A DNA stretch of 57,128 nucleotides, taken from positions 1 through 57,128 of IMG/VR virus record IMGVR_UViG_3300022752_000082; one strand, written 5' to 3'. Positions within the stretch are counted from its first letter, which is position 1; each line of letters begins with the position of its first letter. The notes under the pieces are model-generated. The model searched no databases. It worked only from the letters and a program-made list of their open reading frames with translations, and was not told the DNA's origin. The stretch comes from a virus. Below are positions 5,968 through 37,718 of this stretch, one piece after another. Position numbers and translations under genes: made by a program.

Positions 5968-6323
5968 TACTCGCTCGCCTTTGTGCGCGTGCGTCCCTTG
6001 AGGCGCGCCGACGGGTTTCGGATCTCGACTCCGGCAGTTGCGAGCAACTTGCGGACCTTGCTGTAGGTCGTCCCGTACTGACGTGCGACCTCGATCACCG
6101 TCTTGCCTTCGTTGTAAAGCTGGCCCGCAACTTGCGGCGTCAGCTCGGGTGATTGCGGCGTCGATAGCGACGACGCGTCGTTGAATGTTGACATTTGTTT
6201 CTCCTGTGTCTGTGCTGTAGTTTGTACTTGCTCGCCCTGTTGCGTCGACATCGTCGACAGAGTTTCACGCGCCCGGGCGAATAACCCGCGTGACTCTTCG
6301 AGCAGGTTGGTGCTCGAGTCCAT
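5967..6323 (-). CDS. Small helix-turn-helix protein
   Basis: 118 aa. Residues about 63-100 ('LYNEGKTVIEVARQYGTTYSKVRKLLATAGVE') form a Hin/resolvase-like HTH; the tail is basic. The ATG chosen lies 7 bases after a TATAAT, suggesting a leaderless transcript. An internal ATG at 6194 has a good AGGAG ribosome site and would give a 75-aa protein holding just the HTH; residues 30-43 look low-complexity, so both starts may be used. Probably a DNA-binding regulator. Confidence 0.6.
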   Translation of the reverse strand: MDSSTNLLEESRGLFARARETLSTMSTQQGEQVQTTAQTQEKQMSTFNDASSLSTPQSPELTPQVAGQLYNEGKTVIEVARQYGTTYSKVRKLLATAGVEIRNPSARLKGRTRTKASE

Positions 6324-13031: not shown

Positions 13032-13036
13032 ACAGG

Positions 13037-13104
13037 CCCGTCTGCACGGCGCGTGCCTAGCGTGCCTGTGCCCGTCTGCACGGCGCGTGCCTAGCGTGCC
13101 TGTG
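13037..13104 (-). repeat. Tandem 34-bp repeat x 2 (CCCGTCTGCA family)
   Basis: Two identical 34-base copies stand between a promoter and the stop at 13107. Each begins CCCGTCTGCACGG and ends GCGTGCCTGTG. The same bipartite core appears at 19369, 19526-19620 and six places in 26.9-27.8 kb, some inside genes. Confidence 0.85.
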
Positions 13105-13106
13105 CG

Positions 13107-13697
13107 TCACACCGGGCGGTGCTGCGTGAAGTAGCTAAACGGTTGGCCCGTCCCGGAGTCGAGGCGTGCCGCGACGTGCAGAGCCTTCTTGGCTGCTTCG
13201 CGCGCTTGCTCGATGTCGTCGGTCCCGTCAGGCAGCATGGCGTGTAGCGCGCCGACAGCAAAGTCTCCTCCCGAGCCGAGCCCGTATAGCCCGGTCGAGT
13301 CCCGTGCCCATGAGTAGTCTTGCCCGATGGTGTAGGCAGCGCCGTTGACGACGACCAAGATCTCCGAGCCGGCCTCGGCCGAGCCCGTCTCCGAGTTGCG
13401 TACCTCGCCGTACCCGTTCTTCTCGAAGCACGACCGCAGTGCCGGAACGAAGTCGCGCGTGATGAACCGATCGAGCTTTGCCTCGACGTATGACTGCGCG
13501 TCCGGCGGAGTGAATGCGTACGCGAGTAGGTTGATCGCCCGCACATCGCCGGCGGCGCCGAGCAGGTACTTGCGATTCCTTGTGACCTTGCTTCCTGCCT
13601 TCGCGAGCGTGTAGGTACGTCCGTACTCCTCGGTGACGCGCGAGTCGGCGCCGACCACGACCCACCGCGGGCCTTGGATAGCGACAAGCGTCGTCAT
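13107..13697 (-). CDS. HslV/proteasome beta-like Ntn-hydrolase
   Basis: 196 aa, close to HslV length. After Met removal the N-terminus is TTLVAIQG, matching the Thr1 nucleophile and first strand of T1-family peptidases. 'VVVGADSRVT' places Asp at position 17 as in HslV and proteasome beta subunits; 'AGSKVTR' supplies the Lys33 equivalent after a short insertion; 'YGLGSGGDFAVGALHAM' matches the HslV 'GSGG' loop carrying the conserved Ser. No HslU is seen, but a MoxR-type ATPase is 9 kb upstream. It overlaps the HTH gene by ATGA. It could be an active self-compartmentalising protease or a degenerate structural relative. Confidence 0.75.
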   Translation of the reverse strand: MTTLVAIQGPRWVVVGADSRVTEEYGRTYTLAKAGSKVTRNRKYLLGAAGDVRAINLLAYAFTPPDAQSYVEAKLDRFITRDFVPALRSCFEKNGYGEVRNSETGSAEAGSEILVVVNGAAYTIGQDYSWARDSTGLYGLGSGGDFAVGALHAMLPDGTDDIEQAREAAKKALHVAARLDSGTGQPFSYFTQHRPV

Positions 13698-13909
13698 TCG
13701 TCTGCCGGCAGTGGGTTCTCGATGAGCATCACCTTGACCGCGTTCTGGATCTTTGCGATGTCGGAGTTCTTCGACTGGAGCGGGTTGTCACAGAACTTCT
13801 TGACCTGTGACTTCTTCACTCCGGACTTCTCTGCTACCTTGTCGATGCCGAGCTTTCGGACGGTGCCGGTGAGGTCGAGCATCTTGTCTGATACCTGCGC
13901 TGTTGCCAT
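13694..13909 (-). CDS. Small HTH DNA-binding protein
   Basis: 71 aa. 'TVRKLGIDKVAEKSGVKKSQVKKFCDN' is a lambda-repressor-like HTH, followed by a helix. Translationally coupled to the peptidase gene (ATGA), so it may regulate that operon. Leader without hairpin; GAAGGGAC site. Confidence 0.7.
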   Translation of the reverse strand: MATAQVSDKMLDLTGTVRKLGIDKVAEKSGVKKSQVKKFCDNPLQSKNSDIAKIQNAVKVMLIENPLPADE

Positions 13910-13940: not shown

Positions 13941-13961
13941 TCTATTATAACACTTTTAGAA
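13941..13961 (-). promoter_or_regulatory. Cassette promoter for the HTH-peptidase operon
   Basis: Exact consensus TATAATAGACTC. Confidence 0.82.
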
Positions 13962-14048: not shown

Positions 14049-14249
14049 TTACTTCTTCTGCTCCATCACGACGACTCCGGTCGTGCTGTGCCTCTTTGAG
14101 CCGCAGGTCGGCGGGTACTTCGCCTTGAAGTGCAGGACTATTCCCTGCCCACACTTGGGGCACTCCCACTTCACGCTGACCTTGGGCTTCTTTTCTTTGA
14201 CGGCCTCGGTCGACTCTTCAGTCGTCTCCGGCTCGGTTTCTTCTGCCAT
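14049..14249 (-). CDS. Zinc-ribbon protein
   Basis: 66 aa. Acidic Glu/Thr-rich first half, then 'KWECPKCGQGIVLHF' and 'PPTCGSKRH', a Cys4-like or Cys3His ribbon. Strong AGGAGGT ribosome site, unlike the usual GAAAGGAC. Confidence 0.68.
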   Translation of the reverse strand: MAEETEPETTEESTEAVKEKKPKVSVKWECPKCGQGIVLHFKAKYPPTCGSKRHSTTGVVVMEQKK

Positions 14250-14946: not shown

Positions 14947-15195
14947 TCACCTCAGCACGATGGACTCGACCTTGAGTCGCCCGCGACGGATGAGCCTGCG
15001 CTGGTTGGCCGTGAGGCCGCCCCACACGCCGTACTCGTCCTCACGCGGTATCGCGAAGGCCCGGCACTCCTCGAGCACCGGGCACGAGGCGCAGATCTTT
15101 CGCGCTTTCGCGACGTTACTCTTCTTCAAGTCATCAAAGAAGAGTTCACCGTGACCGACACACGCGGCCCTTGACATCCAGCGGAGGTTCGTCAT
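14947..15195 (-). CDS. whiB: WhiB-family iron-sulfur transcription regulator
   Basis: 82 aa, typical length. Four Cys at 12, 35, 38 and 44 (C...CxxCxxxxxC) bind a 4Fe-4S cluster, followed by the signature GVWGG (56-60) and a basic tail 'TANQRRLIRRGRLK'. WhiB proteins bind the sigma-A region 4 and are limited to Actinobacteria and their phages; phage copies such as mycobacteriophage TM4 WhiBTM4 can repress host genes. Overlaps 15192-15581 by ATGA. Confidence 0.92.
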   Translation of the reverse strand: MTNLRWMSRAACVGHGELFFDDLKKSNVAKARKICASCPVLEECRAFAIPREDEYGVWGGLTANQRRLIRRGRLKVESIVLR

Positions 15196-20529: not shown

Positions 20530-22371
20530 TTATCGGCGCTCACTTACCTGCGTGAGCTGCTGCGCCGCGCTGCGTCCGATGTGGGTCGCGATGTCCTGCG
20601 TCGCGGTCATGCCTGGCTCGATGCGGACGACCACGCCGTTCTTGCGGACAATCTTCTCTGGTGAAGCGTCCGTGGGGTCGAAGGTGACCCAGGTGACCGC
20701 CACACCGGAGGCCGCGCACTGGGCTGCCCAGGCGGACGCCGCTCGCTCCTGGTCGTGCGTGTAGCAGCCATCACTGACTACCACCAGCATCTTGGCGCCG
20801 GTGCCGTTGAGCAAGTTGAGTGAGCCGTCGAGAGCCTTGAAGGCCTGGTCAAACTTCTCGGTTCCGTCACACGCTGTGTACACGTTGACTTCGCTGAGGT
20901 GCTGTCCTGGCTTGAGAGTCGGGAAGACGCCCTGGCCGTAGTAGACCATCGCGGCTCGACCCTGCACGCGGCGCACGGCCTCGCTGAGAATCCACGCGGT
21001 GGACGCCATCGGCTGCATCGCCGCGGACATTGAACCGCTGATGTCGACCATCACGCCGACGGTGAGTGTCGGGTCGTCAGTGTGCTTGCGCACCGTGCGG
21101 CGCCAGGGCTCGACTTGCGTCATCACTCCCTTGGCCTTGAACGCTGCGCCCTGCACCATCGCGCGTGTGCGCAGCCGGCCGGGAGGGATGACCGAGGTGA
21201 CCTCGGTCTCGTCACGCTCGCGGTACTTGGCCTTTTCGAGAAGCTGCGCGAGGCGCACGGCAGAGGTGCGCTCGTCGGTACGCGGCTTGCGCGTCTCGAC
21301 CAGCGAGCTGCTTGTGCGCTCGTCAGCGACCGGGCCTGTGCCCTTGCCGAATACTTTCTGGGCGGTCTCGCGATTCTCCGCCGTGCGCTTTGCTGACTGC
21401 GCACGCGTGCTCGCCTCCTCGCGCCACTCTTCAGTTTGCTGCTGCTCGGCCGCGTCATCCGCTGCACCGATCGACGCGTTGTCGGCTGCTTCCTCGAGCT
21501 CTTTCATCAGCTCTTCCATCATGCCTGCCGTCTCCGGGTCGTCCTCGCCTTCGGTGCCGCCGCCGCCTGCGCCGCCGCCTGCGCCGCCGAAGGAGTCAGC
21601 CATCTCGCCTTCGCCGGCGTCCTTGGCTGCATCTTCGACGAGCTTGGCCCAGCGGCGTGCGATGTCATAAAGCTTTTCGATGTCGTGCGCCTCGGTGACT
21701 TGCGCCTCGCGCCAGAGCTCGGCGAGCTTGTTGAAGAGGTCAACGCCAAGCTTCTTGGTGATGACTCGCTCAATCGACTCGATGTCCTCGAACATGACCG
21801 AGCCTGCGTCGACTCGAGCAGACGTAAGTGCAAGCACCTGTGCGGCCGCGCGTGTCGGCGTGAGCTCGGTGATCGGGTTGAGCTCGAGGTCTGACATCAC
21901 GATGCCAAGCACGCACGCGCGCAGGAAGCACGCGTTGTCCGGGTACATCTTGAGGCCCTGCGCCTCGATGCGGCCCTCCTCCAAGAGCACCAGTGCGTGA
22001 ACCTCGGCCTGAGTAAGCGCCTCGTGCGCAGCAGGCAGGTCCCAGGTCGAGAAGCGAGCGTGAAGCGCCTCGTGAAAGATGAGGCCGGTGGCTTGCGCGT
22101 ACTCGAACTGCACGTTGCGCTCGGTGATGTTGCCGACGCGCTTGGGGTCGACCTTGCCGAAGGCGACGCCTGCGTCGAGCTCCATCTCGGCGGTGAGCGG
22201 CGCGAAGCACGCGGGAGCGCCGCTGCTTGTCCTGCTGCCGATGCGCACCGCGATGTCGCCGCGCCCTGCGAGCATGTTGGCTAACTGACCGGCTTGCGAA
22301 CCGGCGAGCAGCCAGGCCGGGTCAACCGGAGCGCTGGCTCGCGTTCGTTTGTTGTAGTCGATGTGTCCCAT
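20530..22371 (-). CDS. VWA-domain protein with zincin-like HExxH motif
   Basis: 613 aa. N-terminal part has 'LIFHEALHARFSTW' (HEALH, 100-104) with downstream 'LLEEGRIE' (about 129-136), a zinc-metallopeptidase-like arrangement seen in DUF2201/VWA proteins. A low-complexity Gly/acidic/Gln linker (255-330) leads to a C-terminal VWA domain with MIDAS 'DISGSMS' (443-449) and 'VVVSDG'. VWA partners work with MoxR or CobS AAA ATPases, and one lies next upstream. It could be a CobT-like chelatase subunit or a protein-remodelling adaptor; the HExxH favours the latter. GGAAGGAC supports this ATG over one 21 bases upstream. Confidence 0.82.
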   Translation of the reverse strand: MGHIDYNKRTRASAPVDPAWLLAGSQAGQLANMLAGRGDIAVRIGSRTSSGAPACFAPLTAEMELDAGVAFGKVDPKRVGNITERNVQFEYAQATGLIFHEALHARFSTWDLPAAHEALTQAEVHALVLLEEGRIEAQGLKMYPDNACFLRACVLGIVMSDLELNPITELTPTRAAAQVLALTSARVDAGSVMFEDIESIERVITKKLGVDLFNKLAELWREAQVTEAHDIEKLYDIARRWAKLVEDAAKDAGEGEMADSFGGAGGGAGGGGTEGEDDPETAGMMEELMKELEEAADNASIGAADDAAEQQQTEEWREEASTRAQSAKRTAENRETAQKVFGKGTGPVADERTSSSLVETRKPRTDERTSAVRLAQLLEKAKYRERDETEVTSVIPPGRLRTRAMVQGAAFKAKGVMTQVEPWRRTVRKHTDDPTLTVGVMVDISGSMSAAMQPMASTAWILSEAVRRVQGRAAMVYYGQGVFPTLKPGQHLSEVNVYTACDGTEKFDQAFKALDGSLNLLNGTGAKMLVVVSDGCYTHDQERAASAWAAQCAASGVAVTWVTFDPTDASPEKIVRKNGVVVRIEPGMTATQDIATHIGRSAAQQLTQVSERR

Positions 22372-22419
22372 TGTTGTGTCCTTCCTAGACATTGTTGTTG
22401 GTCGGGCTTGCGCCCTGAT

Positions 22420-22440
22420 TCTATTATAACACTTTTAGAA
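22420..22440 (-). promoter_or_regulatory. Cassette promoter for the VWA gene
   Basis: Exact consensus TATAATAGAATC; leader hairpin GGGC-GCAA-GCCC. Confidence 0.82.
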
Positions 22441-22459
22441 ACGGTATTGGTGGTGAGAG

Positions 22460-22529
22460 AGCCGGCCGGGACCTACCACAGTCCGGCCGACTCCCTCCCG
22501 GCGAGTCCTTCCTCGACGAGGAAAGGATG
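22460..22529 (-). terminator. Two hairpins after the AAA ATPase gene
   Basis: GGCCGGGA/TCCGGCC (22460-22492) and TCCTTCCTC/GAGGAAAGGA (22504-22528) lie in the 100-base gap between the ATPase stop and the VWA promoter. Confidence 0.5.
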
Positions 22530-22542
22530 ACTCAAATCGAGG

Positions 22543-23538
22543 TCAGATTCTCGCCGGCCTGAACTCCGCTCCTAAGACGCGGGTCAGGACATCTGCTACC
22601 ACCGGGCGGTCAATCTCGGGCGCTGCTGCGAGCAGGTTCTCCACCGCGAACTTGGTGCCGAACGCGACTTCCAGGTCGCGGAAGGCGAGCAGCTCGCGCA
22701 TCTGCGGAGCCCAGGTGGTCTCCGCTGCCTGCTGCTTCTTGGCCAGGTTCTGCGCCGCCGTGACGAGCGCGGACGAGACTCCAAGCTTGCGAGCGAGAGT
22801 CCAGTCAGTGGTCATCTCCGCCTGCACGGTGAATCGTGAGAGAAGCGCCTCAGACAGGCGCACGCCGGGAGCGTTGGGGTTAGTGGCCGCGATGACGTAG
22901 AAGCCATCGGCCGCCTTGACCGTGCCGCGCTCTGGGTTGGCCGTGACCGTGTACTCGCGGCGGCCGTCCATCAGACCGTAGACGATGCTGAGCACCTTCG
23001 GGTCGATGAGGCCAACCTCGTCGATCAGCAGCACGCCGCCTGACTCGGCAGCCTTGAGCAGCGGGCCGTCTTCCCAGATGAAGCCACCGCTTGGCGTCTG
23101 CACGTAGCCGCCGACCAGGTCAGCGACCTCAGTGTCACCCGAGCCAAGCACGGTGAAGAGTCCACCGTCCTGGTCGTGGAATGCAGCTTCGACAAGAGCA
23201 GTCTTGCCGCAGCCGGGCGAGCCGTAGAGGAGCACGTAGCTGCTCATCTCGCGAGCCTTGCGAAGCACCGCGATGTCGAGGTGGTCGCCCCACGCGCGAG
23301 TGTAGTATAGCTCGCCGTTCGGGCGTGCGTACGACTTTTCGCCGGTGAGGGCATTCGCCGCCACTGTCTTCACCACCTTTGGTGTCTTGGGCTTGAATGT
23401 GCTGAGCTTGCCGTATGGGTCGACTGCCTTGTCAAGGGCCGCCCACGCGTCGGTGCTCACGGCCTGGGTCATCGTGTTGATGACAAGGTCCGAGAGCCCC
23501 GGGTAGAGCTCATTGTACTTCGTTGTGATTGGGTCCAT
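22543..23538 (-). CDS. MoxR/CobS-type AAA+ ATPase
   Basis: 331 aa. Walker A GSPGCGKT (106-113), Walker B 'VLLIDEVG' (169-176), sensor-1 'AATNPN' (Asn220) and arginine finger in 'LSEALLSRF' (Arg235). The 'DLVGGY' and 'GPLLKA' segments are typical of the MoxR/RavA/dynein-related clade. It should remodel or load a client together with the VWA protein encoded next. CobS-type cobaltochelatase ATPases belong to the same clade, so eye inspection cannot separate the two. Confidence 0.88.
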   Translation of the reverse strand: MDPITTKYNELYPGLSDLVINTMTQAVSTDAWAALDKAVDPYGKLSTFKPKTPKVVKTVAANALTGEKSYARPNGELYYTRAWGDHLDIAVLRKAREMSSYVLLYGSPGCGKTALVEAAFHDQDGGLFTVLGSGDTEVADLVGGYVQTPSGGFIWEDGPLLKAAESGGVLLIDEVGLIDPKVLSIVYGLMDGRREYTVTANPERGTVKAADGFYVIAATNPNAPGVRLSEALLSRFTVQAEMTTDWTLARKLGVSSALVTAAQNLAKKQQAAETTWAPQMRELLAFRDLEVAFGTKFAVENLLAAAPEIDRPVVADVLTRVLGAEFRPARI

Positions 23539-34071: not shown

Positions 34072-35313
34072 ATGACAAAAAAGACAAAGCGACGACGCGC
34101 GCTCGCCACGGCCGCGGTCCTCGTACTTATCATCGCGGTGGCGCAGCGCGTCGCGCACGCGGATTCGGCTTCTTCGTGGGGGCTTGACCGGATCGACCAG
34201 CGGTCTCTGCCGCTTGACGGCTCGTATATATACGACAAGACCGGATCCGGAGTCACGGCGTACATTGTCGACAGCGGGATCAACTCGTCGCACCTAGAGT
34301 TCTCTGGGCGCATCGGGCAGGGCACCTCGTTCATCAACGACGGCCGCGGCACCGAAGACTGCCACGGACACGGCACGCATGTCGCCGGGACACTCGGTGG
34401 CTCATCATATGGAGTCGCTCGTGGTGTCACATTGGTACCGGTACGCGTCTCTGACTGCGCTGGCTCCGCATGGGCATCGACCATAGCCTCAGGCGTGCGC
34501 TGGGCGACCGAGCATCACCAGCCCGGCGTACCGGCGGTCATGAACGTCAGCGTCAGCGGTCCACTGTCAAACAACCTCAACTGGGCGATCGCAGACGCGG
34601 TCGCCGACGGTATCGTCGTGGTCGTCGCCGCCGGCAACAACAGGGCCGACGCGTGCACGTACTCTCCAGCGTCCGCGACGGCGGCCATCACGGTCGGCGG
34701 CACAGAGTCAAATGACTCGAGGATCTCGATGTCAAACTACGGTTCTTGCGTCGACATCTTTGCTCCGGGCGGCTGGGTTGTCTCGTCGTGGATCGGCGGC
34801 CCGTCTGCCACGCGTACTCTTCGCGGCACGTCGTTCGCGTCTCCGCACGTCGCCGGCGCCGCGGCTCTTATCCTCGGGGTCTCTTCTACGCTGACGCCCG
34901 CACAGGTTACAGAGAGGCTACTTGCGTCTGCGACTCGCGATGTAGTTGTTGACGCGGGCGCCGGGTCGCCAAACCTGCTTCTTTACGTCGACAGGCAGCC
35001 GCCGGTTTCTTCTACGACCGTAGCTCAAACGACTACGACTACTACAACTATTCCGCCGATAGCCACAACGACAACAACAACTATCAAGCCAGCCGATCCG
35101 CAGGTCAGCGCCTCACGCGCAGGCAGAGGCTACTACCTGGTCAAGGTCACAGGAGCGCCAAAGAACACAGAGATCGGTGTCAACGCACTCGACGTGTCGC
35201 GCAGGCCGCAACACTCGCTGACGTGGCTTGTCACGACCGACGGCAGCGGAGGCGCGTCGTTTTTTGTCAAGGCAGAACTTTCAAGGTACTCGCTGTCACT
35301 CGTCATCAAGTGA
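34072..35313 (+). CDS. Secreted S8 subtilase
   Basis: 413 aa. Signal peptide (1-30, 'LATAAVLVLIIAVAQRVAHA'), then the catalytic triad Asp67 ('YIVDSGI'), His100 ('GHGTHVAGTLGG') and Ser253 ('GTSFASPHVAGAAALIL'), with oxyanion Asn in 'VAAGNN' (188). No long propeptide. The C-terminus has a Thr-rich linker (about 330-355) and a small beta domain. Closest in motif to proteinase K/aqualysin-type enzymes. ATG lies 6 bases after TATAAT, so leaderless. Unusual in a phage; its neighbour with similar Thr linkers suggests a pair. Confidence 0.9.
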   Translation: MTKKTKRRRALATAAVLVLIIAVAQRVAHADSASSWGLDRIDQRSLPLDGSYIYDKTGSGVTAYIVDSGINSSHLEFSGRIGQGTSFINDGRGTEDCHGHGTHVAGTLGGSSYGVARGVTLVPVRVSDCAGSAWASTIASGVRWATEHHQPGVPAVMNVSVSGPLSNNLNWAIADAVADGIVVVVAAGNNRADACTYSPASATAAITVGGTESNDSRISMSNYGSCVDIFAPGGWVVSSWIGGPSATRTLRGTSFASPHVAGAAALILGVSSTLTPAQVTERLLASATRDVVVDAGAGSPNLLLYVDRQPPVSSTTVAQTTTTTTTIPPIATTTTTTIKPADPQVSASRAGRGYYLVKVTGAPKNTEIGVNALDVSRRPQHSLTWLVTTDGSGGASFFVKAELSRYSLSLVIK

Positions 35314-36920: not shown

Positions 36921-37718
36921 CTAGCGATTATCGCCAAACTTTTCGGTTGTGATGACTCCGCGGCTGTACTCACTGGGGGGAGGAAGCTCTTTGCGCACTA
37001 ACGCGCGCAGCAGCCAGCGGTCTGTCCCGTCGTACCTAGGAGTAAACGAGTACCTGCCGTGGACAGACGTGTTGTTGTCAATGATTAAGACATCTCCCGC
37101 CTTAAGGATAACTTCTCGAACCGACTCTTCAACCGCTTCTTCAAGCCGCCTAAGCGCGTCGTCCGCGCTCGCGTCAACGCCGGTCATTAGGTCTTCGTCA
37201 TATGTCATCGTAAACTTTCCGTCCGGCGCTTGCTTTAAGACTGGCAGCGCAACATACTGGTCTTCTTCTCCTCCGGTCCGAAAGCTTTTGTCTACTGATG
37301 TGATAAACTTTGGTTTAAGTAGCGTCTCTACGGTTACCGGCTGGAGTCGCGCCACAATGTCGTCTACGGTTGCGTAGGTCGTACCGGCGGCTGGATCTCC
37401 TCGCAGGCAAAGTAAGACAACATAGTCTGGCTTATAGGGATGGAAAGCAGTCTCCGTGTGCAGCGCAAGCCTAGTTGTCGATGATCCAGAGATCTGCTCC
37501 GATTCGTGTTCTTTCTTTGGAAAGACATGTTGTATCATGCGCCCTTCTTGCTCCTGCTTATAGGCGACAATATGACCAAGCTTTACCGCTTCTGTAACCA
37601 GCTCGCGGATTGGCACGCTAAGTTGACTTGCGTCTATGTCATCATTTGACAGAGGCGTCGGAGGTATATTTTCGACGTAGGGCGGAACGGTCAACCAGGT
37701 CTTATGCCGAGTTCCCAT
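36921..37718 (-). CDS. Fe(II)/2-oxoglutarate oxygenase, clavaminate-synthase-like
   Basis: 265 aa. 'LALHTETAFHPYKPDYVVLL' holds the H-x-E metal pair (His87, Glu89), and 'NNTSVHGRYSFTPRYDGTDRWLLR' holds the distal His220 and the 2-oxoglutarate-binding Arg. These blocks are characteristic of the clavaminate synthase/AsnO/VioC branch, which hydroxylates free or peptidyl amino acids such as Asn and Arg. Substrate here unknown. A TATAAT with a cassette-like box overlaps the stop of the reductase gene upstream. Confidence 0.85.
   Translation of the reverse strand: MGTRHKTWLTVPPYVENIPPTPLSNDDIDASQLSVPIRELVTEAVKLGHIVAYKQEQEGRMIQHVFPKKEHESEQISGSSTTRLALHTETAFHPYKPDYVVLLCLRGDPAAGTTYATVDDIVARLQPVTVETLLKPKFITSVDKSFRTGGEEDQYVALPVLKQAPDGKFTMTYDEDLMTGVDASADDALRRLEEAVEESVREVILKAGDVLIIDNNTSVHGRYSFTPRYDGTDRWLLRALVRKELPPPSEYSRGVITTEKFGDNR

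What the first reader, a model, noticed from the sequence alone, without database searches (positions are those of the whole stretch)
13107..13697. Phage-encoded HslV/proteasome-like peptidase
N-terminal TTLVA after Met, Asp17, a Lys33-like residue and the GSGG loop follow T1-family peptidases. HslV-like proteins are rarely noted in phages. It is coupled to a small HTH protein and lacks an HslU gene nearby. It might degrade host regulators, mature virion proteins, or work with the MoxR-type ATPase.
Basis: partly seen in the sequence, partly recalled or inferred. Interest (0 to 1): 0.72.

Follow-up and report, generated by a model that had tools for sequence, protein, structure and literature searches.

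The report
Phage proteasome-like threonine peptidase
The gene encodes a small proteasome-related protein-cutting enzyme with its active site intact; such enzymes are already known from phages, but this one belongs to a large branch seen here only in viruses, often next to a gene regulator of the WhiB type.

Summary
The ORF (13107-13697, minus strand, 196 aa) is a proteasome-fold Ntn hydrolase: PHROG 1040 'peptidase HslV family' E=1.3e-23; AlphaFold2 pLDDT 91; best solved match BPH, Foldseek E=2.6e-11. Thr1, Lys33 and Asp166 equivalents are invariant in 59 of 59 distinct sequences, Asp17 in 58.

It is not HslV: 24.9 bits against a cut-off of 137, and profile comparison ranks an AAH-like cellular/phage group first (E=7e-30), then BPH (9e-22), then HslV (3e-13). 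It is not rare either: at least 523 IMG/VR stretches encode a relative. Fuchs, Alva and Lupas (2021) already described phage proteasome homologues, found no co-occurring AAA+ partner, and knew of no actinophage AAH.

Added here: a lineage seen only in viruses (97/90). WhiB lies near the peptidase in 38 of 82 loci, within 300 bp downstream in 32; it is the neighbour most often shared by both halves of the lineage.

Most likely a self-activating, compartmentalised, early-expressed peptidase without a dedicated unfoldase. Substrates unknown. New member of a known kind.

The parts
13107..13697 (-). Proteasome/HslV-superfamily (group I, AAH-like) N-terminal-threonine peptidase, 196 aa; Thr1=T2, Asp17=D18, Lys33=K37, Gly47 region 47-51, Ser129=S142, Asp166=D180, Ser169=T183 (the last three by recalled numbering and spacing)
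13694..13909 (-). Small HTH-like protein, 71 aa, overlapping the peptidase start (ATGA); family found within 750 bp of the peptidase in 9 of 82 loci
   Evidence: (weak transcription-regulator hits only)
13941..13954 (-). Promoter-like element AGTGTTATAATAGA upstream of the HTH-peptidase pair; one of 36 sites in the window at up to 2 mismatches (0.27 expected)
14049..14249 (-). Small CxxC protein (66 aa, zinc-ribbon-like by eye); its family is also a neighbour in both halves of the peptidase lineage
14947..15195 (-). WhiB-type regulator, 82 aa (Pfam Whib E=1.1e-19); in 37 of the 38 loci that have one it lies downstream of the peptidase, here 1.25 kb upstream

Best explanation
The gene encodes a phage version of the small proteasome homologues of 'group I' (the HslV/BPH/AAH/PPH set of Fuchs et al. 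2021), closest to their AAH-like members and belonging to a lineage seen here only in viruses, in good part actinophages. SHOWN: predicted fold, complete active-site residues, a start codon directly before Thr1 in 80 of 80 relatives (no propeptide needed), no HslU-type gene in the window, recurrent neighbours. INFERRED: host methionine aminopeptidase removes Met and frees Thr1, so the enzyme needs no self-processing. Subunits form a closed ring or double ring with the active sites inside, as BPH does. The mobile, mostly acidic loop after helix 2 lines the entrance and selects substrates. No dedicated unfoldase is needed, so substrates are short, unfolded or delivered by host chaperones or unfoldases. 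The gene is expressed with the small-gene region from the repeated TATAAT-type promoter, early in infection, beside WhiB and HTH regulators. It most likely removes or trims host or phage regulatory proteins during takeover. The role is the weakest step (about 0.35 on its own); fold and active site about 0.97; compartmentalised, unfoldase-independent action about 0.65.
For: Sequence family. Structure: pLDDT 91.1, pTM 0.88; Foldseek ranks 1-4 are BPH chains; VIA Z 20.7 BPH, 19.9 archaeal beta (tied), 18.8 HslV. Active site. Start next to Thr1 in 80 of 80. Profile ranking AAH-like > BPH > HslV. Tree. Loop with net negative charge in 49 of 59, median 14 residues by my definition, pLDDT 62 for residues 101-110. 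Long acidic pore loop, no partner found in pull-downs, inert on standard substrates: described for BPH in PMC5777263 (passages). No AAA+ partner for the new homologues: PMC8665760 (sections 10 and 14). WhiB neighbour: 38 of 82 loci, 37 downstream on the same strand, 32 within 300 bp; most shared neighbour of both halves, 11 of 26 and 16 of 34 loci. Promoter array: 36 sites against 0.27 expected.
Against: No biochemistry exists for AAH-type enzymes that I saw, and BPH itself showed no activity in vitro. Ring assembly was not tested. In the window WhiB lies upstream, not downstream; 44 of 82 loci show no WhiB in the stretch held, and 40 of the 73 loci with at least 1.5 kb downstream lack it. Conserved gene order among related phages may reflect descent only. 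The window's promoter motif was not found (exact match) in any of 157 loci, so a promoter array is known for the window alone, and early timing is inferred. In 3 of 80 relatives (L031-L033) another in-frame ATG lies upstream of the Thr1 start; upstream GTG/TTG were not counted. One relative (L039) has Glu for Asp17.
Confidence: 0.6

Rival explanations
1. It is an HslUV-like ATP-dependent protease whose unfoldase is the phage's MoxR/CobS-type AAA_5 ATPase (22543-23538).
For: Both genes occur in the window and in phage DSL-LC01; AAA_5 is over the cut-off in 8 of 12 larger related contigs that I chose.
Against: The ATPase has its own partner, a 620-aa protein with a VWA-type DISGS motif; the DSL-LC01 equivalent weakly matches VWA_CoxE, under the cut-off. 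MoxR/CobS ATPases paired with VWA proteins are a known separate type (recalled). The ATPase is about 9 kb away, with a promoter-like site of its own just upstream (23586). AAA_5 was not over the cut-off in 4 of 12 related contigs (fragments possible), and in one of the 8 (G012) the match is a ClpB-type protein.
Confidence: 0.08
2. It borrows a host unfoldase (ClpX, ClpC or the proteasomal ATPase ARC/Mpa) as its motor.
For: Actinobacterial hosts have such unfoldases (recalled); only 1 of 14 related phage records carries an AAA_2 unfoldase over the cut-off, a ClpB-type one.
Against: No docking site was tested. BPH pull-downs found no ATPase (PMC5777263, passages).
Confidence: 0.15
3. It is a virion maturation (prohead) protease.
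For: It lies on the same strand as the terminase gene in the window; in DSL-LC01 the terminase gene starts 5.4 kb and the portal gene 9.8 kb downstream of it. Phage head proteases are common (recalled).
Against: In the window it sits among small genes about 11 kb from the terminase gene, and in relatives near WhiB and HTH genes. No capsid or portal gene is annotated next to it in DSL-LC01; the IMG/VR neighbours were not annotated one by one. The inside-the-ring active site of the family does not suit shell proteins (inference).
Confidence: 0.08
4. It is a specific processing enzyme or protein ligase, like connectase, rather than a degradative peptidase.
For: The family holds connectase, a monomeric ligase (PMC8665760); BPH is inert on standard substrates.
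Against: The S3/S4 two-helix insertion that marks connectase is absent: the model has no helix before residue 53.
Confidence: 0.07
5. It is an inactive relic or a non-enzymatic scaffold.
For: None beyond the lack of known substrates.
Against: Active-site residues are kept in relatives at 41-55% identity to the window protein.
Confidence: 0.02

Closest known systems
[quoted passage not shown]
   Same: Group I proteasome homologue of bacteria and phages; best plasmid matches of the window protein are in Rhizobium, Sinorhizobium, Mesorhizobium, Streptomyces and Paraburkholderia; profile E=6.8e-30; no AAA+ partner known
   Different: The cellular and related phage members compared here mostly begin T-C-[IV]-V-G, the window lineage T-T-x-x-x-x-Q-G. 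The window lineage is a separate clade seen only in viruses. The 2021 paper found no Actinobacteria-specific phage with AAH. The AAH label of my comparison group is inferred from its hosts, not from the authors' alignments
BPH (bacterial proteasome homologue; 5ovs, 5ovt, 5ovu), PMC5777263
   Same: Top structural match; Thr1/Asp17/Lys33; loop after helix 2; no unfoldase partner found
   Different: 16-18% identity; outside the 44-row clade that holds the window; the BPH rows compared here are all bacterial
HslV (ClpQ)
   Same: Fold, Thr1, Asp17, Lys33, GSGG
   Different: 24.9 bits against a cut-off of 137; lacks the T-A-D-A and K-D-W-R blocks invariant in the six HslV rows; no HslU found; HslV forms its own clade
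PPH (proteasome homologue of phages and their hosts)
   Same: Phage-borne group I homologue
   Different: PPH is about 140 residues and lacks helix H2 (PMC8665760); here 196 residues and both helices, 53-61 and 72-93
'ATP-dependent protease subunit HslV' of Actinomycetia phage DSL-LC01 (OQ999401); 'protease' of Microbacterium phage Pumpernickel and Arthrobacter phage Hum25; PHROG 1040
   Same: Same lineage (DSL-LC01, 54% identity) or its nearest outside rows
   Different: Annotated in records; 'HslV' and 'protease' have 0 occurrences in the held text of the DSL-LC01 paper

Membership tests
Proteasome-like Ntn hydrolases (MEROPS T1 type) | Proteasome fold (sandwiched beta sheets, helices H1-H4) | tested here: met
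   AlphaFold2 pLDDT 91.1; Foldseek E=2.6e-11, probability 1.00; 1000 of 1000 aligned chains Z>=8
Proteasome-like Ntn hydrolases (MEROPS T1 type) | N-terminal Thr/Ser nucleophile, Asp17, Lys33 | tested here: met
   T2 59/59, D18 58/59, K37 59/59 distinct sequences; start codon directly before Thr in 80/80
Proteasome-like Ntn hydrolases (MEROPS T1 type) | Ring or double-ring assembly and peptidase activity | not testable with these tools
   needs protein
HslV (ClpQ) | Scores above the NCBIfam equivalog cut-offs | tested here: not met
   24.9 against 137 and 23.5 against 157.75 bits
HslV (ClpQ) | Cognate HslU encoded with it | tested here: not met
   PF07724: no match in the window record (possibly a fragment) or in DSL-LC01; 1 of 14 records over the cut-off, a ClpB-type protein
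HslV (ClpQ) | Falls in the HslV clade | tested here: not met
   HslV rows form their own clade, 100/100
BPH | Falls with BPH sequences | tested here: not met
   the window sits in a 44-row clade without BPH rows, 100/100; the BPH rows themselves are not resolved as one clade. Profile E=9.3e-22 against 6.8e-30 for the AAH-like group
AAH (Fuchs et al. 2021) | Nearest cellular relatives in alpha-proteobacteria and Actinobacteria | tested here: inconclusive
   For: 21 plasmid records, Rhizobium 9, Sinorhizobium 7, Streptomyces 2, Paraburkholderia 2, Mesorhizobium 1, the best at 33% identity over 97%. Against: the scan of 84,980 genomes gave 31 loci, none with an actinobacterial title; actinobacterial chromosomes were not searched with the profile
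AAH (Fuchs et al. 2021) | Membership in the authors' AAH cluster | not testable with these tools
   the published alignments and cluster map are not held here
PPH | About 140 residues, lacking helix H2 | tested here: not met
   196 residues; helices 53-61 and 72-93
Connectase | Two-helix insertion between S3 and S4, no first helix pair | tested here: not met
   no helix before residue 53, first helix pair present

The most novel reading that the evidence does not exclude
Actinophages carry their own subfamily of self-compartmentalising peptidase, kept together with a WhiB-type iron-sulfur regulator as an early takeover module. The peptidase controls, or is controlled by, WhiB-type regulators: it removes host WhiB proteins or limits the phage one, with no ATP-driven unfoldase. 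It would be a virus-made proteasome core acting on a defined class of transcription factor.
Probability: 0.12. Interest if true: 0.72.

Novelty: new member of a known kind. Interest (0 to 1): 0.36.

Why it matters
The substrates and partners of proteasome homologues such as BPH, AAH and PPH were unknown in the papers I saw (PMC5777263 passages, PMC8665760 sections). A large viral lineage with a recurrent WhiB neighbour gives a concrete hypothesis and short, expressible proteins with which to test how such enzymes work without an unfoldase. Two phages next to the lineage in the tree (Pumpernickel, Hum25) have named hosts in their records, so a deletion can be tried. It also updates the 2021 statement that no actinophage with AAH was known: DSL-LC01, Pumpernickel and Hum25 are now in GenBank, if their proteins count as AAH.

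Tried and rejected
A single-protein scan of viral contigs with the window protein found no relative; the alignment-based scan did. Pfam PF00227 with the genome tool missed the window gene at E<=0.001, though hmmscan placed it exactly at the cut-off. PADLOC gave nothing for the peptidase or HTH protein, and only weak hits for the AAA_5 ATPase. Of 289 Alphaproteobacteria genomes searched with A3, 79 had a match, most of them short C-terminal matches that I take for HslV without testing each; the two best, both long, were L133 and L134 (L135 is the BPH gene already held as L112). The 50 VIA rows shown list no Anbu chain; that is no evidence of distance. One listed paper (PMC12345140, passages) mentions HslV only as a host gene.

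Weak points: the genome-contig scan used one 10-residue pattern taken from phage sequences, so 'seen only in viruses' holds for that scan (31 loci among 84,980 genomes, full-length identity up to 29%) and for the tree rows. The tree used 22 of the 80 viral loci plus window, DSL-LC01 and 39 others; its bootstrap had not quite settled (0.989); its script labelled one bacterial row (L134) as 'other phage', which does not touch the window clade. Near-identical rows were not merged beyond exact identity: 80 viral loci gave 58 distinct proteins. The window row is counted as WhiB-bearing although its WhiB lies upstream. In one search families antisense to the peptidase were set aside; one of them (13 and 23 loci) is commoner than WhiB and is a reading shadow of the peptidase gene itself. 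The AAA_5 and AAA_2 searches took 12 contigs that I chose among the longer ones of the 80.

Full report
WHAT IS THERE. The ORF at 13107-13697 lies on the minus strand and encodes 196 residues. It begins M-T-T-L-V-A. Pfam Proteasome matches at exactly its gathering score, 22.4 bits; PHROG 1040, 'peptidase HslV family', matches at E=1.3e-23. The closest phage record is Actinomycetia phage DSL-LC01, 54% identity over 99%, annotated there as an HslV subunit. Of 50,697 phage records 17 (13 distinct phages by name) matched at E<=1e-3.

ACTIVE SITE. The 80 viral proteins reduce to 58 distinct ones; with the window 59. In all 80 a start codon stands directly before Thr1; in 3 of them (L031-L033) another in-frame ATG lies upstream. 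T2 and K37 are invariant, D18 is in 58 of 59, D180 in 59 of 59; residue 142 is Ser or Thr (37 and 22), residue 183 Thr or Ser (42 and 17). These match Thr1, Lys33, Asp17, Asp166, Ser129 and Ser169 of the proteasome; the last three equivalences are recalled and from spacing. Residues 141-150 were part of the search pattern, so their conservation is partly by construction.

STRUCTURE. AlphaFold2 on the 59-row alignment gives pLDDT 91.1 and pTM 0.88. Foldseek ranks BPH (5ovs, E=2.6e-11) first, then 5ovt, HslV and proteasome beta. VIA-align gives Z 20.7 for BPH (rmsd 2.6, 178 aligned) and 19.9 for an archaeal beta subunit (rmsd 2.6, 168 aligned; tied), 18.8 for E. coli HslV (rmsd 3.0, 169 aligned). 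Among viral models the best is an uncultured Caudovirales protein named HslV, TM 0.94, and 35 models match at E<=0.001. The least confident stretch, residues 101-110, is the loop after helix 2. In BPH this is the long acidic pore loop (PMC5777263, passages). Between the invariant Y96 and S111 the 59 proteins have 7-16 residues, net negative in 49.

WHICH FAMILY. It is not HslV by NCBIfam cut-offs, by tree, or by the lack of an HslU-type match in the window and in DSL-LC01. hhalign of the 59-row profile gives E=6.8e-30 against a 12-row group of cellular and phage proteins, 9.3e-22 against BPH, and 3.1e-13 against HslV. The 12-row group holds Rhizobium, Mesorhizobium, Streptomyces and Paraburkholderia plasmid proteins, four loci from Myxococcota genomes, one alphaproteobacterial genome and phages of Psychrobacter, Moorella and Geobacillus. 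That distribution broadly fits AAH of Fuchs et al. 2021 (PMC8665760; abstract, sections 10 and 14 and passages read), but their alignments are not held here, and no record with an actinobacterial title turned up. In the tree (63 rows) the window, DSL-LC01 and 22 viral rows form one clade (97/90). Pumpernickel, Hum25 and ct2KA10 proteins are the nearest outside rows (27-row clade, 99/89), all viral. In 84,980 bacterial and archaeal genomes the same scan confirmed 31 loci, with full-length matches at no more than 29% identity.

SURROUNDINGS. Upstream, and probably in the same operon, is a 71-aa HTH-like gene whose stop overlaps the peptidase start. Its family lies within 750 bp of the peptidase in 9 of 82 loci. 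A promoter-like element AGTGTTATAATAGA precedes the pair. The window has 36 such sites at up to 2 mismatches (0.27 expected), 34 on the minus strand between 3.4 and 26.7 kb, the region of small genes. I read only the sites before the HTH and CxxC genes in their context. The exact motif was found in none of the 157 loci then held. A WhiB gene lies within the fetched stretch in 38 of 82 loci: 37 downstream on the same strand, 32 within 300 bp; in the window it lies 1.25 kb upstream. Of 73 viral loci with at least 1.5 kb downstream, 33 have it and 40 do not. WhiB is the neighbour family most often shared by both halves of the lineage, 11 of 26 and 16 of 34 loci, antisense shadows aside; a CxxC protein comes next, 11 and 6. 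WhiB is stated to be confined to actinobacteria and their phages (PMC10611076, passages), so at least the WhiB-bearing part of the lineage is actinophage.

PARTNERS. The window's AAA_5 ATPase (22543-23538) is paired with a 620-aa protein carrying a DISGS motif, as in DSL-LC01. AAA_5 is over the cut-off in 8 of 12 larger related contigs, one of these being a ClpB-type protein, so it is not a strict companion. AAA_2 was over the cut-off in 1 of 14 records and is ClpB-like there. This agrees with the published lack of AAA+ partners for these homologues and with BPH pull-downs.

HOW IT PROBABLY WORKS. Met removal frees Thr1; subunits assemble into a ring with inward active sites; the acidic loop guards entry; unfolded or short substrates are cut without ATP. 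All of this is inferred from BPH and the proteasome. The gene's setting suggests early regulatory proteolysis rather than capsid maturation. Substrates are not known.

WHAT IS KNOWN IN PRINT. PPH and AAH in phages: PMC8665760. 'HslV' without HslU in Salmonella jumbo phage pSal-SNUABM-04: PMC7823757 (passages). 'BPH' in Citromicrobium phage RXM: PMC8953757 (passages). A search for phage + HslV + WhiB returned 0 papers; the titles listed (partly capped lists) name no WhiB-peptidase pairing, and apart from the papers cited in this report I did not open them. The library holds open-licence papers only.

VERDICT. A real, ordinary-in-kind but little-studied enzyme: a new member of a known kind, with two additions worth recording, the viral lineage and the WhiB neighbour.

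Noticed in passing
window 3464-26660, minus strand: Array of promoter-like AGTGTTATAATNGA elements across the small-gene region (36 sites in the window at up to 2 mismatches, 34 on the minus strand, 0.27 expected); the exact motif is absent from the 157 loci then held.
   Followed up: partly
window 13036-13103: Two perfect tandem copies of a 34-bp GC-rich sequence directly after the peptidase gene; possibly a terminator or regulatory element.
   Followed up: no
window 20530-23538, minus strand: MoxR/CobS-type AAA_5 ATPase followed by a 620-aa protein with a VWA-type DISGS motif; similar pair in DSL-LC01.
   Followed up: partly
window 34072-35313, plus strand: 413-aa protein matching PHROG 3677 'protease' at E=2.2e-64, a second candidate protease in the window.
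   Followed up: no
window 36921-37718, minus strand: TauD/CsiD-type dioxygenase (PF02668 E=2.4e-16), directly after a B12-dependent ribonucleotide reductase.
   Followed up: no
L039 6001-6570: Natural Asp17 to Glu change in an otherwise intact peptidase.
   Followed up: no
L018, L019, L042, L036 and others, C-termini: 14 of 59 distinct peptidases carry positively charged C-terminal tails of 12-39 residues; the window protein has none.
   Followed up: no
L005 6001-6558 (Moorella phage MTATph1): The annotated CDS starts at 6043, downstream of the in-frame start that precedes the catalytic Thr; the record probably truncates the enzyme.
   Followed up: yes
L153, L156, L157: AAH-like peptidases occur on large plasmids of rhizobial genera (Rhizobium, Sinorhizobium, Mesorhizobium, Paraburkholderia; 19 of 21 matching plasmid records).
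   Followed up: partly
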